From positions 1-6,245 of the forward strand of contig CACYEJ010000317.1 of assembly GCA_902773395.1 (NCBI GenBank): DNA of 6,245 bases, written 5' to 3'. Numbering within the stretch: the first letter of the stretch is position 1; each line of letters opens with the position of its first letter. The notes beneath the pieces were generated by a model. That model saw only the letters and a list, made by a program, of their open reading frames with translations. It had not been told where the DNA came from and did not search any database. Source of the stretch: an uncultured Ruminococcus sp. (lineage in GTDB: Bacteria; Bacillota_A; Clostridia; Oscillospirales; Acutalibacteraceae). Shown here in pieces: positions 1 through 3,745 of the stretch. Made by a program: the position numbers and the translations under genes.

Positions 1-1338
1 AACTGTGAATGTGTTACCTGAAACTGCGTCCTTATATGTACCTGCCTTAGCGTATCCGCCGCCGTTTGCAACGGAAACCTGACCGCTTCCGCTGCCCTTG
101 ACGATAACAGCACCGCCGTCTTTACGAGTAATTACGGAGCAGCCGTTGGAAGCTGTGTAATAATCAGCCTTGCCAATCATTGCGTTATGGAACTTATTAA
201 CCTCTGCAACTTCCTTGCTTGTGAAGTGAGTACTTCCCTTGTCGCCTACATGAGTGTTTTCCTTTGCACTCGGGTCGGAGAACGGACGTGAGAAGTAAAG
301 TGATGTAGCCAAGTTACGAGCAGCAACAACTGCATAGCAGCGGTCGATTACGTTTTGGCTCATATGGTGAGAATAACCCCAGTCATAAGCATTTGCCCAT
401 GTATCGTGGCTTTCACCCCAATATACAATCTTATCAGATGTAAGACCTCTTGCCGCCCAGTTTGCATATCCTTCCGGCACGCTGCCCTGTCTAGCGGCAT
501 TTCTAAGTGAGTGACCGTAACCTGAGTCTGTGATGCCGATGTACTTAGTATAATTTTTCATTACAGTAACAGCATCTCCGCCCGGATCATCAAGAATCTC
601 GCCGTAGTTCCACATACCGGAAACAGATGTTACTGTAGGCCAGAAGTCGCCCTGCTCGCCGGGAAGTCCAATGTGCTTTGCTGCGTCCCAACGGATACCG
701 TCAACGCCAATGCTCTTTAACTCTTCAACATAACGCTTAACCTTGCTCTGAACAAATTCATTTTCTGTAGCGAGATCTTGCATACCAATATCACCAAAGA
801 TTACCCAATTACGATCTCCCCATTTATCATCGGGAACTTGTCCCCAAGTGTGCCAATACTGACTAGGCTTAAGCTCATCGTCAATATCGCTGTGGTTACC
901 CGAAAGGTGGTTAGCAACAACGTCAACAACGATCTTAATTCCATACTTATCTGCTTCGGAGCAGAGAGCAGTAAGATCCGCTTTTGAACCAAGTCCGTTA
1001 TTTCCTACATAAAAACCCTTCGGCTGATAAAGCCAATACCATGTGTCAGTACCGTTAGGCTGCGCAGGTGAAGTCTGTACCGAAGTAAAGCCTGCTGCCG
1101 CAATGTTCGGAAGTTCAGCTTTTATGTCGTTGTACTTCCAGTCAAAACAGTGGAGAATTACACCGTCCTGAATGTTAGACGCAAGACCATAGCTCGCAGC
1201 TGACGCTTCCTCAGACACTGCCGCTGTAGACTCTTCAACATTGACTTCGGCTGCTGATGCGACAGTCTCTGCCATAACTGCGCTTGGAACAAGCATAGTT
1301 GCAGCGAGTAATGCACACATCGTTCTTTTTAGTGTCAT
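1..1338 (-). CDS. Secreted GH13 alpha-amylase, AmyE-like (3' end outside window)
   Basis: Extracellular alpha-amylase cleaving alpha-1,4 bonds in starch. 446 codons are visible, starting at ATG 1338; the frame stays open to the window edge, so the C-terminus is missing. Residues 1-23 or 1-30 form a Sec signal peptide (KR, then a hydrophobic core, with possible cleavage at VMA-ET or SAA-EV). The (beta/alpha)8 barrel runs from about residue 56 to 390 and shows the GH13 motifs: region I DVVANH (139-144), region II GIRWDAAKH with nucleophile D218, region III YGEIL with acid/base E247, and region IV ESHD with D312. All three catalytic residues are intact. The QTSP (88-91) and WYWLYQP (100-106) segments and AAKH/YGEIL resemble B. 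subtilis AmyE (subfamily GH13_28 by recollection). The beta-sandwich domain C begins near 395. Start choice: GGGAGG lies 7 nt upstream. A starch-binding module or dockerin could lie beyond the window but is not visible. The gene has its own promoter and a long leader. Confidence 0.95.
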   Translation of the reverse strand, partial: MTLKRTMCALLAATMLVPSAVMAETVASAAEVNVEESTAAVSEEASAASYGLASNIQDGVILHCFDWKYNDIKAELPNIAAAGFTSVQTSPAQPNGTDTWYWLYQPKGFYVGNNGLGSKADLTALCSEADKYGIKIVVDVVANHLSGNHSDIDDELKPSQYWHTWGQVPDDKWGDRNWVIFGDIGMQDLATENEFVQSKVKRYVEELKSIGVDGIRWDAAKHIGLPGEQGDFWPTVTSVSGMWNYGEILDDPGGDAVTVMKNYTKYIGITDSGYGHSLRNAARQGSVPEGYANWAARGLTSDKIVYWGESHDTWANAYDWGYSHHMSQNVIDRCYAVVAARNLATSLYFSRPFSDPSAKENTHVGDKGSTHFTSKEVAEVNKFHNAMIGKADYYTASNGCSVITRKDGGAVIVKGSGSGQVSVANGGGYAKAGTYKDAVSGNTFTV

Positions 1339-1345
1339 ATTAATT

Positions 1346-1351
1346 CCTCCC
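1346..1351 (-). promoter_or_regulatory. Ribosome-binding site of the amylase gene
   Basis: GGGAGG on the minus strand, 7 nt before ATG 1338. The ten bases GATTGGGAGG recur exactly before the protease start (3698-3707). The site fixes the amylase start and leaves everything upstream as untranslated leader. Confidence 0.85.
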
Positions 1352-1374
1352 AATCATAATTTTTATTTTGACCA

Positions 1375-1404
1375 ACTCCCTCTCACTCACAACATAGAAG
1401 GAGT
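1375..1404 (-). repeat. Leader stem-loop III
   Basis: In minus-strand RNA, ACUCCUUCU pairs with AGAGGGAGU: nine pairs with one U-G wobble around a 12-nt loop. The stem ends 23 nt before the Shine-Dalgarno sequence. The wobble makes the pairing fit the minus-strand RNA; as plain DNA the repeat has one mismatch. Confidence 0.55.
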
Positions 1405-1421
1405 GTATCACCAGATTAAAA

Positions 1422-1475
1422 ATACCAATATCTCCCAAAGTGCAGATAATACTTATTAATTTTTGATATTGGTAT
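1422..1475 (-). repeat. Leader stem-loop II, 11-bp perfect inverted repeat
   Basis: Arms ATACCAATATC (1422-1432) and its exact complement (1465-1475) flank a 32-nt loop. On the minus-strand transcript the second arm runs straight into UUUUU and then AA. This looks like a weak, AU-rich intrinsic terminator or attenuator. The low GC and large loop make efficient termination uncertain. Confidence 0.55.
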
Positions 1476-1530
1476 AGATTCAATAATAATCAAAAGATAT
1501 TCTCTACAGCACTTCCAATCACTACCGAAA

Positions 1531-1630
1531 AATTTTACACAATGGCATTTTTAGGAAAACTTGAACAAATCGTGAAGAAACACTTCACATAAAATTCACA
1601 ATCGACCCAAGTAAATTATTGTGTAAAATT
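1531..1630 (-). repeat. Leader stem I, 13-bp perfect inverted repeat with inner hairpin
   Basis: AATTTTACACAAT (1531-1543) is exactly complementary to 1618-1630, with 74 bases between. The 5' arm starts about 10 nt after the predicted transcription start. Inside the loop, GTGAAG (1572-1577) pairs with CTTCAC (1583-1588) around five bases. No target-site duplication flanks the pair, so a small transposon is unlikely. It is either an RNA domain or two inverted protein-binding sites. Confidence 0.55.
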
Positions 1631-1646
1631 CCCTAATCCTATTATT

Positions 1647-1675
1647 ATTATAAAAAATTAATTGCCGCTTGTCAA
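1647..1675 (-). promoter_or_regulatory. Perfect-consensus sigma-A promoter of the amylase gene
   Basis: Minus-strand TTGACA (1670-1675), a 17-bp spacer, then TATAAT (1647-1652): an exact match to the vegetative promoter consensus. The start of transcription is expected near 1640, about 300 nt upstream of the amylase ATG. No other gene lies downstream before the amylase. A promoter this strong on a catabolic gene suggests that control acts by an operator or through the leader. Confidence 0.85.
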
Positions 1676-1707
1676 GTAGCAAAAGTGTTTAATTTATGAA
1701 GTTTTAT

Positions 1708-1721
1708 TGAAAAGTTTTCCA
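1708..1721. promoter_or_regulatory. Possible cre-like operator upstream of the amylase promoter
   Basis: The minus-strand 14-mer TGGAAAACTTTTCA is nearly palindromic and matches the outer positions of the CcpA/LacI-type cre pattern (TG..AA......CA). It lacks the usual central CG. It is centred about 75 bp upstream of the predicted start. Weak evidence, recorded because amylase genes are classic catabolite-control targets. Confidence 0.25.
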
Positions 1722-1918: not shown

Positions 1919-1958
1919 AAAAAGCTCTGCCAAAGCAACAAATTTCCTTTGGCAGAGC
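1919..1958 (-). terminator. Rho-independent terminator of the protease gene
   Basis: A perfect 12-bp stem (1947-1958 with 1924-1935) around an 11-nt loop. On the minus strand it is followed at once by UUUUU (1919-1923). It lies about 28 bases after the protease stop and separates the protease transcript from the amylase unit. Confidence 0.9.
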
Positions 1959-1985: not shown

Positions 1986-3689
1986 TTAATAATCCGTAAT
2001 AAGATTTACCGATCTTCTAAGAATAATGAGTGAATCCTCCGAAGTAATCTTGCCGTCAAAATTAACATCAGAATTAATTAGCTGTTCGCTGTCAAAATTT
2101 TCAAGATGTACTGAGTATCTAAGAGCAAGCAGAGCATCTGTTACATTAGATTTGCCGTCGTTGTTGATGTCGCCCAATAGGTTAGTTGTAGTAATCGCCT
2201 TGATTACAAGCGTGCCCCCAACATTATCGTTATTGTTAGCATAAACATCAAGCAAATCATAGGCTTCGTTTCCATTAATAATGAAGCTATCGCCTTTTTT
2301 CGGGGTGGGCTTAAAAATAAAATCTCCATTTTTAGCTGTAAGCCACTCGTCTACGCCAATTGAAGCATAATCATTTACAGCCGAGCCGTCAATCTCAATA
2401 CCAATTGCACCAACACCAGCCGGAATAATTGCTCCCTCTGTATTTACTCTAATATATCCTGCGCTGTCAATATTGCCGCTGCTAAGATAACTCCACTTTG
2501 ATTTATCAGCAACAGGCTTATTGTTCTCAACAGGAATATAATAAGCAGTATATGCAGAATTTTCATTAAGGGTCTGGAACACAATGCTTTCCAAACGATT
2601 ATGTACATCGTCAAAATCAAACACATTTGCAAATGTAACACATTTAAGCTTATTGTTATTTTTATCTTTCAGATAAGTATAATACGTAGCGCCGTAACGC
2701 TCGTTCTGATATAGCTTATCATAAGGGTTAGCAGTTTTCACTGAGGTAAATGCAACATTCTCTCCCCATACATTGGTGTTAAACGCATACAAATCATAAT
2801 ACGACACCCAGAGATAACCTTCATCTCCGCTGCTCGGTCCCCAGCTATTTTTAGCAAGCCACGCACCGTCTGCCGGAGGACGACTGTTTTCATTAAAATT
2901 GTCTGCTGAATAATCATCGTCCCAGCCAATGACGGTAATCGCATGACCGGAAAACCTTGTAACCTCTTTATCCGAATAATAGCATTTGCGTCCGCTGCCG
3001 TAGCCCGAACCATTATTATAAGAAGTCGCAACAGCGCCATAATTCTTAATAGCCGTTTTAATCGAAGTGATATCATTATTCACATATTGAATACCGGTTA
3101 CATTGAAAGAGTTCGAATAATCGTCCATATCCTCAGGATAAACAGAATGACCATAAGGCACATCGCTTTCAAGCTTTGGACCCTGCCACGACGCAAAGTA
3201 GCCGGCATAAGTCTTACTGTAGCCACCGGGAGCAAATGTTCTGTTAAGCCAGCCGGTTCCGTCGTCATTGTTGTGATAAGCTGTAGCCCACCACGCCAAA
3301 TGCTCCTCAGATAAGTCATTAAGCCCCTTATCCTGAGAAGACAGAAAAGCCTCTAGTGTACCGATACCCGAAAAAGCCCAGCATGTATTATTGCTGCCCT
3401 GATTTCTGATTTCGGTTGTTTTAGTAACATAGCTGCTTGGCAAAGCACCTGACGGCTCTAAGACTTTACCGGGTACTGTGTAAGGTGCAATACCTACGCC
3501 CGAATCCTCCGAAACCTCCACCTCACCGTTCAAGTAAGCAGTATACAGCTCGTTGTATTCGCCAGCCAAAACTGCCTGCACAGGGATTTCTTCTTTGTTC
3601 TGGGCACTCGCCTCAGCAGCAGCCGAAACAGCCATTGCCGCAGCCATTAATGCAGCCAACGTTTTTTTATAAAATGAACTGTCAGCCAT
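1986..3689 (-). CDS. Secreted papain-family (C1) cysteine protease with C-terminal dockerin
   Basis: 567 residues from ATG 3689. Residues 1-30 are a signal peptide (KK, an alanine-rich core, possible cut at ASA-QN). About 30-85 is a short pro-like segment. The papain fold spans about 86-310: oxyanion Q97, catalytic C103 in TCWAFS, H249 in SGHAITVIGW, and N281 in KNSWG. The Q97-C103 spacing equals papain's. Residues about 311-500 are a beta-rich region that probably corresponds to the 'lectin-like' domain that follows C1 domains in many clostridial proteins. Residues 505-567 are a type I dockerin with two calcium loops: D507/N509/D511/D518 and D541/N543/D545/D552. The protein is probably attached to a cohesin on a cell-surface or secreted scaffold. 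Start choice: an in-frame ATG at 3737 lies essentially at the predicted transcription start and has no ribosome-binding site, while ATG 3689 has GGGAGG 8 nt upstream and begins a proper signal peptide. The substrate is unknown. Confidence 0.93.
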   Translation of the reverse strand: MADSSFYKKTLAALMAAAMAVSAAAEASAQNKEEIPVQAVLAGEYNELYTAYLNGEVEVSEDSGVGIAPYTVPGKVLEPSGALPSSYVTKTTEIRNQGSNNTCWAFSGIGTLEAFLSSQDKGLNDLSEEHLAWWATAYHNNDDGTGWLNRTFAPGGYSKTYAGYFASWQGPKLESDVPYGHSVYPEDMDDYSNSFNVTGIQYVNNDITSIKTAIKNYGAVATSYNNGSGYGSGRKCYYSDKEVTRFSGHAITVIGWDDDYSADNFNENSRPPADGAWLAKNSWGPSSGDEGYLWVSYYDLYAFNTNVWGENVAFTSVKTANPYDKLYQNERYGATYYTYLKDKNNNKLKCVTFANVFDFDDVHNRLESIVFQTLNENSAYTAYYIPVENNKPVADKSKWSYLSSGNIDSAGYIRVNTEGAIIPAGVGAIGIEIDGSAVNDYASIGVDEWLTAKNGDFIFKPTPKKGDSFIINGNEAYDLLDVYANNNDNVGGTLVIKAITTTNLLGDINNDGKSNVTDALLALRYSVHLENFDSEQLINSDVNFDGKITSEDSLIILRRSVNLITDY

Positions 3690-3697
3690 AAAGCCAA

Positions 3698-3703
3698 CCT
3701 CCC
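3698..3703 (-). promoter_or_regulatory. Ribosome-binding site deciding the protease start
   Basis: GGGAGG 8 nt before ATG 3689. It lies inside the 16-codon extension that the upstream ATG (3737) would add, which argues that the extension is not translated. Confidence 0.85.
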
Positions 3704-3745
3704 AATCGTTATATTCTAAAATCTGAAAATTCAGCATTCAAATTA

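What the first reader, a model, noticed from the sequence alone, without database searches (positions are those of the whole stretch)
1339..1675. Perfect promoter feeding a ~300-nt structured leader before an alpha-amylase gene
An exact TTGACA-17-TATAAT promoter lies far from the amylase ATG. The transcript between carries three independent long stems (13, 11 and 9 pairs) plus a nested hairpin. Two of the stems are perfect, in an AT-rich spacer where such pairing is unlikely by chance. No recognised riboswitch or T-box motif is present. A leader-RNA control of a starch enzyme would be a new regulatory element if conserved.
Basis: partly seen in the sequence, partly recalled or inferred. Interest (0 to 1): 0.7.

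Follow-up and report, generated by a model that had tools for sequence, protein, structure and literature searches.

The report
Conserved structured leader of amylase mRNA
The untranslated start of a secreted starch-degrading enzyme's mRNA in a Ruminococcus-like gut bacterium is a folded RNA kept by evolution in related species; it matches no RNA family on record and probably helps set how much enzyme is made.

Summary
On the minus strand an exact TTGACA-17-TATAAT promoter (1675-1647) lies 308 nt before the ATG (1338) of an Amy16-like GH13 amylase, and the leader folds better than shuffles (z -3.59). The leader is conserved. L001 and L005 share promoter and leader; of 64 pairs of their common fold, 10 changed on both sides and stayed paired, against 0-3 in slid controls. 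In the genus 19 of 21 orthologous genes have the exact promoter; the 5' stem P1 recurs, and a covariance model built without the window finds the window leader in place. Rfam has nothing. Best reading: a new leader-RNA family gating translation of one starch enzyme; the switch is inferred. In relatives, 13 of 14 readable amylase 3' ends carry an anti-SD-like motif (core ACTCCTATAT in 11) before the terminator. In four genomes it stands alone behind the same promoter type: a candidate small RNA.

The parts
1695..1711 (-). upstream box (weak copy of TTCANAAANNTATCACA, 19 nt before the -35)
   Evidence: consensus at fixed spacing in orthologues; window copy matches 10 of 14 specified bases (read); inside the stretch aligned to L001/L005
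1647..1675 (-). promoter TTGACA-17-TATAAT, exact
   Evidence: exact in 19 of 21 orthologous genes
1638..1642 (-). predicted transcription start
   Evidence: inference: about 7 nt after the -10
1336..1640 (-). structured 5' leader RNA up to and including the ATG
1632..1640 (-). P0 closing stem, 5' arm
   Evidence: 2 of 7 pairs with two-sided change
1413..1420 (-). P0 closing stem, 3' arm
1619..1631 (-).
1530..1542 (-). P1 3' arm
1571..1589 (-). nested hairpin inside P1, not conserved
   Evidence: gap in L001 and L005
1512..1529 (-).
   Evidence: 6 of 19 consensus pairs with two-sided change
1479..1496 (-). P2 3' arm
1465..1475 (-). P3 5' arm (11-pair stem)
   Evidence: two compensatory pairs in L005
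1422..1432 (-). P3 3' arm
1388..1402 (-). anti-SD arm of P4 (UCCUUCUA...)
   Evidence: 14 pairs, 13 invariant
1345..1358 (-). P4 3' arm, covers the Shine-Dalgarno GGGAGG (1351-1346)
1375..1383 (-). anti-anti-SD arm (9-pair hairpin with 1404-1396)
1..1338 (-). GH13 alpha-amylase, cut by the window edge; relative of R. bromii Amy16
1919..1958 (-). intrinsic-terminator-like hairpin after the upstream papain-dockerin gene
   Evidence: 12-pair stem then T-run, read; inverted repeat I1; not listed, whose loop limit is 8

Best explanation
The window carries a dedicated promoter and a conserved, structured 5' leader of the amylase mRNA, a leader-RNA family found here only in one genus of Ruminococcus relatives. 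SHOWN by sequence: conserved promoter and leader, recurring P1, compensated P2 and P3, a strongly conserved 3' part. INFERRED: the 5' part (P0-P3 junction) is a sensing or scaffold domain, and the 3' part is an expression platform. In it the segment UCCUUCUA pairs either with the Shine-Dalgarno site (P4, translation off) or with GAGGGAGU just upstream (9-pair hairpin, translation on). The signal (metabolite, protein, small RNA or growth state) is unknown.
For: BLAST aligns window 1718 down to the ATG with L001 and L005, so the similarity stops about 40 nt above the -35. Consensus fold -39.8 kcal/mol, z -5.9, 0 of 200 column shuffles as good. Of the 64 long-stem pairs counted (of 82 predicted), 10 have two-sided change; 1 of 500 shuffles reaches it, slid controls 0-3. 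P1 in 17 leaders, 14 distinct: 87% paired, 7 two-sided cells against 3.5, 1 of 500 shuffles. A covariance model from 7 other leaders hits window 1649-1528 at 29.1 bits, E 1.1e-4; best in 415,585 bases around 42 other amylases 18.9 bits. Two near-equal states of the 3' domain in all three leaders: SD paired -11.7/-12.6/-11.8, SD free -13.5/-10.6/-12.1 kcal/mol. 66 of 77 ungapped columns identical in the last 82 before and including the ATG, 105 of 210 before that.
Against: P4 is 13 of 14 pairs invariant, so it has no covariation support; 42, 32 and 62 of 500 shuffles bury the SD as well, 2, 17 and 23 of 500 do both. In full-leader ensembles with 36 nt of coding sequence P4 is not the main SD partner in the three leaders; most of the SD prefers bases after the ATG. 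L001's MFE is not better than shuffles (z 0.5). The fold was derived from the same three sequences, which favours it over slid controls. Other P1 measures are weaker: 3 pairs with two-sided change (105 of 500 shuffles), pair types 485 of 500, covariation score 24 of 500. Within group 1 P1 shows no covariation; the alifold covariation term is unfavourable for groups 1 and 2, for group 2 worse than all 200 shuffles, and for the window group 11 of 200 shuffles do better. G010 and G016 have ~105-nt leaders in which no P1 arm was found; L069 (G004) has no such promoter.
Confidence: 0.45

Rival explanations
1. The leader is a 5' stabiliser: P1 and the junction protect a highly transcribed mRNA from ribonucleases, with no switch.
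For: P1 close to the 5' end is the stem shared by the three leader groups; an exact consensus promoter in 19 of 21 genes suits high constitutive output; the P1 loop varies in length.
Against: The most conserved part in the window group is the RBS-proximal stretch, not the 5' end; P2 and P3 are conserved far from the 5' end.
Confidence: 0.2
2. Control is at transcription start by a factor bound at the upstream box; the leader is a passive spacer.
For: Box TTCANAAANNTATCACA at a fixed 19 nt from the -35: 20 places in 18 of 22 genus genomes, 0 reversed-control hits; 15 at amylases, 4 at the stand-alone RNA, 1 inside a reading frame (G013:C71). Outside the genus near chance: 22 places in 20 genomes against 11 control hits (398 genomes searched, 6 further matching genomes are in the genus).
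Against: A passive spacer would not keep compensatory changes; the window's own box is weak, 10 of 14 bases.
Confidence: 0.16
3. The leader is mainly the target of an anti-SD RNA: the amylase 3' UTR, or the stand-alone RNA derived from it, pairs with the RBS or leader and blocks translation, as in icaR.
For: Motif in 13 of 14 readable amylase 3' ends and alone in four genomes; all seven group-1 RBSs pair with it better than any of 76 background RBSs; L079, L082 and L088 leaders z -2.9 to -4.1.
Against: Window group only z -1.2 to -1.5; L077 z -0.9, L160 z -1.9. The seven RBSs are related, only 17 background RBSs have AGGAGG, and CUCCU pairs with any SD. The target site differs between groups. 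The window's own 3' UTR is not held.
Confidence: 0.14
4. Chance pairing in AT-rich spacer DNA.
For: 7 of 20 leaders fold with z above -0.5.
Against: Conservation and compensation across species.
Confidence: 0.03

Closest known systems
Riboswitch-type leaders with translational expression platform
   Same: Long 5' leader, junction domain, mutually exclusive pairings possible around the SD
   Different: No ligand known, no Rfam family matched; the model found no clear second locus in the genus genomes
icaR mRNA of S. aureus, 3'-UTR/SD pairing (PMC3868564; 12 passages seen, one from the abstract)
   Same: An anti-SD motif in the 3' UTR of the same mRNA can pair with its SD in several relatives of the window
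   Different: Here there is also a conserved structured leader, and the 3' module exists as a separate transcript unit; nothing tested experimentally
Ruminococcus bromii Amy16 (PDB 9qf9; PMC5814915, passages seen)
   Same: Closest solved relative of the encoded enzyme, E 3.7e-181; described there as a dockerin-containing alpha-amylase
   Different: That paper has no hit for 'untranslated'; the held locus nearest to Amy16, L006 (75% over 403 residues), has no such promoter; R. bromii's own Amy16 leader was not looked at

Membership tests
Known Rfam leader/riboswitch classes (incl. T-box) | covariance-model score above the family's threshold | tested here: not met
   Searches (E<=5, window; gathering, 9 related loci): no match in the leader
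Leader RNA acting through SD occlusion | anti-SD segment able to bury the SD, with an alternative pairing | tested here: met
   both states within about 2 kcal/mol for the isolated 3' domain of all three leaders (prediction only)
Leader RNA acting through SD occlusion | covariation in the SD stem, or a measured effect on translation | tested here: inconclusive
   13 of 14 pairs invariant; 6-12% of shuffles bury the SD as well; full-leader ensembles prefer other SD partners; no experiment
Transcription attenuator | conserved intrinsic terminator in the leader | tested here: not met
   flags only the nested hairpin 1589-1571 in the leader, which L001 and L005 lack
icaR-type 3'UTR-5'UTR regulation | anti-SD motif in the 3' UTR of the same mRNA | tested here: inconclusive
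   present in 13 of 14 readable 3' ends of relatives; the window is cut before the stop codon
icaR-type 3'UTR-5'UTR regulation | RNase III cleavage of the duplex | not testable with these tools
   needs experiment
RNA thermometer | temperature-dependent melting of the SD stem | not tested
   not computed

The most novel reading that the evidence does not exclude
The amylase transcription unit is a two-ended RNA regulator. A bistable 5' leader gates translation, and the 3' UTR module (UAUAACUCCUAUAUUCAAUUUUCGGC plus terminator) is a small RNA that pairs with the amylase RBS or leader. The module matters enough to be kept, behind the same box and exact promoter, as an independent non-coding gene (G001, G002, G021, G025); in G021 and G025 it sits beside the gene that flanks the amylase in other species, as if the 2-kb coding sequence had dropped out and the RNA had stayed.
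Probability: 0.25. Interest if true: 0.78.

Novelty: new variant of a known kind. Interest (0 to 1): 0.57.

Why it matters
The paper listings seen showed no RNA-level control of starch degradation in Ruminococcus. A leader conserved across a genus on an Amy16-like amylase gives a direct, testable handle on how these starch degraders set enzyme output. The free-standing version of the 3' UTR module would be a natural case of an mRNA end turning into a small-RNA gene.

Tried and rejected
Regulon idea: the leader model finds no clear second locus in 22 genomes (the extra rows are antisense hits at the same loci and one 26.8-bit hit in G003). That search scored at most 150 first-look candidates a genome, and found 11 of 22 genomes in all, so a missed copy is possible.

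Leader peptide: the AUG inside the window-group 3' block is followed at once by a stop in the window (AUG UUG UGA) and by a 9-codon frame in L001/L005; no SD seen by eye; not pursued (read).

Pseudoknot between the 5' end and the P1 loop (UUAGG/CCUAA in the window): seen by eye, not tested.

Viral contigs: no relative or motif. Other amylases: of 47 loci scanned, 46 have no exact promoter within 600 nt; the exception, L025, has the promoter and spacing of L079. The two best weak model hits among 42 of them (18.9 and 18.8 bits) lie just upstream of amylases. Only L006, L008 and L010 of those 42 were checked to lie outside the genus.

Rows dropped: the P1 count left out L071 (no good partner), L072 and L073 (no arm), L069 (no homologous leader) and the G021 amylase (found later). 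18 of the 82 predicted pairs of the window fold (small hairpins and stray pairs) were not given; over all 82, 12 have two-sided change. The window fold rests on 3 sequences. 3' ends not reached: G004, G013, G021 and, by their coordinates, G001, G002, G018. One search printed nothing (faulty search expression); one search repeated it. In one search loci matched on the minus strand were printed unflipped; corrected.

Full report
WHAT IS THERE. The amylase is on the minus strand (start 1338, running off the window; GH13 by Pfam). Its closest solved relative is R. bromii Amy16. Upstream on the same strand lie a papain-type protease with a dockerin, ending at 1986, and then a 12-pair hairpin with a T-run (1958-1919, read), so the amylase probably needs its own promoter. 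An exact TTGACA-17-TATAAT is at 1675-1647. Between it and the ATG no other minus-strand site reaches 9 of 12. The leader folds to -75.9 kcal/mol, z -3.59. Rfam has no family for it.

CONSERVATION NEAR THE WINDOW. A scan of species genomes with the amylase gave 59 loci; the nearest, L001, is labelled uncultured Ruminococcus (that 'RUG' isolates are rumen genomes is recalled). In L001 (86% identical amylase) and L005 (68%) the promoter and leader align to the window; the BLAST match runs from window 1718 to the ATG and stops there. Gapped global alignment of the 310 nt further up gives 64-68% over aligned columns, so that figure alone would not separate the two regions. The common fold of the three leaders has a closing stem P0, three arms P1, P2, P3 and a separate stem P4 over the Shine-Dalgarno site. 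Of 64 pairs counted, 10 show a change on both sides with the pair kept (P2 six, P3 two, P0 two); 1 of 500 shuffles reaches that and slid controls give 0-3. The consensus energy beats all 200 column shuffles, z -5.9; its covariation term is less striking (11 of 200 shuffles do better).

CONSERVATION ACROSS THE GENUS. 22 genomes of L001's genus are held, and all 22 encode relatives of the enzyme. The upstream region could be read for 18 orthologous genes, two more and one more: 19 of 21 have the exact promoter, one 11 of 12 (L091) and one none (L069); those lie 105-341 nt from the ATG. A box TTCANAAANNTATCACA sits 19 nt before the -35 at 15 amylase genes in 14 genomes, no reversed-control hit. 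P1 is found in 17 leaders at matching places, 14 distinct, 87% of cells paired, with A-U to G-C exchanges at two pairs and U-A to A-U at one; 1 of 500 shuffles reaches the two-sided cell count, but 105 of 500 reach the number of such pairs. Within group 1 alone P1 gives no covariation. A search for the best partner of the 5' arm gave 12 of 18 leaders at or below 5% of shuffles, but in five of these (L070, L074, L077, L079, L082) the best partner is a second, more distal site and not the P1 site. That is what a strand with two rival partners would show, but it also weakens a simple P1 claim. Independent check: a covariance model from seven group-1 leaders finds four of the five group-2 leaders and the window leader at E below 0.01 and L005 at 0.07 (window alone 29.1 bits, E 1.1e-4), while 415,585 bases around 42 other amylases give at most 18.9 bits. 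It does not list L001, L079 or L076. Antisense hits at true loci reach 30.7 bits, so the strand is fixed by the promoter and not by the score.

HOW IT MAY WORK. The 82 columns up to the ATG are the most conserved part of the three window-type leaders (66 of 77 ungapped columns identical, against 105 of 210 before). There UCCUUCUA (1402-1395) can pair with the SD region (P4, 14 pairs) or with GAGGGAGU (1382-1375). For the isolated 3' domain the two states differ by about 2 kcal/mol or less in all three leaders. I read this as a translational gate. The limits: P4 is nearly invariant, 6-12% of shuffles bury the SD as well, having both states as good is rarer (2, 17 and 23 of 500), and in full-leader ensembles the SD mostly pairs with the start of the coding region. 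A stabilising 5' structure or promoter-level control remain possible.

THE OTHER END. The box pattern also hit four places without an amylase: L150 (G001), L157 (G002), L154 (G021), L158 (G025), each with an exact promoter. No ATG frame over 70 codons starts before the terminator (shorter frames were not excluded); the stretch runs to ACTCCTATATTCAATTTTCGGC and a strong terminator-like hairpin. The same 22-mer (two mismatches allowed) occurs once in 10 of 22 genomes, exact in 9. In six of them it lies 9-31 nt after a dockerin-ending frame, the amylase (in G011 on another contig than the amylase start), just before the hairpin. Of 14 amylase 3' ends that could be read, 13 in 12 genomes have a recognisable version: exact in 5, core ACTCCTATAT in 11, degenerate in G016 and the first G012 copy. 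The miss is G003, where the frame ends without a dockerin and is followed by what looks like foreign (ExbD-like, recalled) sequence, so its assembly is doubtful. Outside the genus it was not found at two mismatches: 8 of 398 family genomes match at 3 or fewer, three of those in the genus. In G021 and G025 the stand-alone RNA sits beside the gene that flanks the amylase in G014, G015, G022 and G023 (in G025 it points the other way relative to that gene); G021 has a separate amylase with its own exact promoter and a weak leader hit (23.7 bits, E 0.02). In G001 a ~200-nt insertion splits the RNA, which speaks against strict function there. The motif pairs with the RBS of all seven group-1 genes better than with any of 76 background RBSs, and with a leader site in L079, L082 and L088 (z -2.9 to -4.1), but only weakly with the window group. 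It resembles the icaR case without being shown to be one.

PRIOR WORK. The held library gave no paper with Ruminococcus, amylase and 'leader RNA' together; searches on the amylosome, on starch with riboswitch terms and on Amy16 (listings seen) showed no RNA control of these genes in titles or abstract starts. PMC5814915 and PMC3868564 were searched for terms only.

VERDICT. The conserved structured leader is well supported; its mechanism is a reasoned guess.

Noticed in passing
L150, L154, L157, L158, from the promoter to the terminator: Stand-alone non-coding stretch with the same box, an exact promoter, the 22-mer ACTCCTATATTCAATTTTCGGC and a terminator-like hairpin; candidate small RNA.
   Followed up: partly
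L162-L165, L167, L171, L174, L178, L179, L181, L183-L185 (amylase 3' ends): Anti-SD-like motif between the amylase stop codon and the terminator in 13 of 14 genes whose end could be read; missing in G003 (L186).
   Followed up: partly
L186 (G003:C28, from 19153): The amylase frame ends in a non-dockerin tail followed by an ExbD-like frame (recalled resemblance), as if the contig were joined to foreign DNA.
   Followed up: no
L150, between the 5' part and the motif: About 200-nt insertion with strong inverted repeats splits the non-coding RNA in G001.
   Followed up: no
L110 1500-1531 (G001:C63): A second copy of the region upstream of the -35 in front of decayed-looking sequence.
   Followed up: no
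L017 4860-4921, L029 4787-4840: The two best weak leader-model hits among 42 other amylase loci lie directly upstream of amylase starts.
   Followed up: no
window 1986-3737: Papain-type cysteine protease with a dockerin next to the amylase.
   Followed up: no
L077, L079, L082, L088, L160 leaders: In group 2 the 5' arm has two possible partners (UUUGUGCAG and GUGCAAUUUACCCC type), as if alternative folds were kept.
   Followed up: partly
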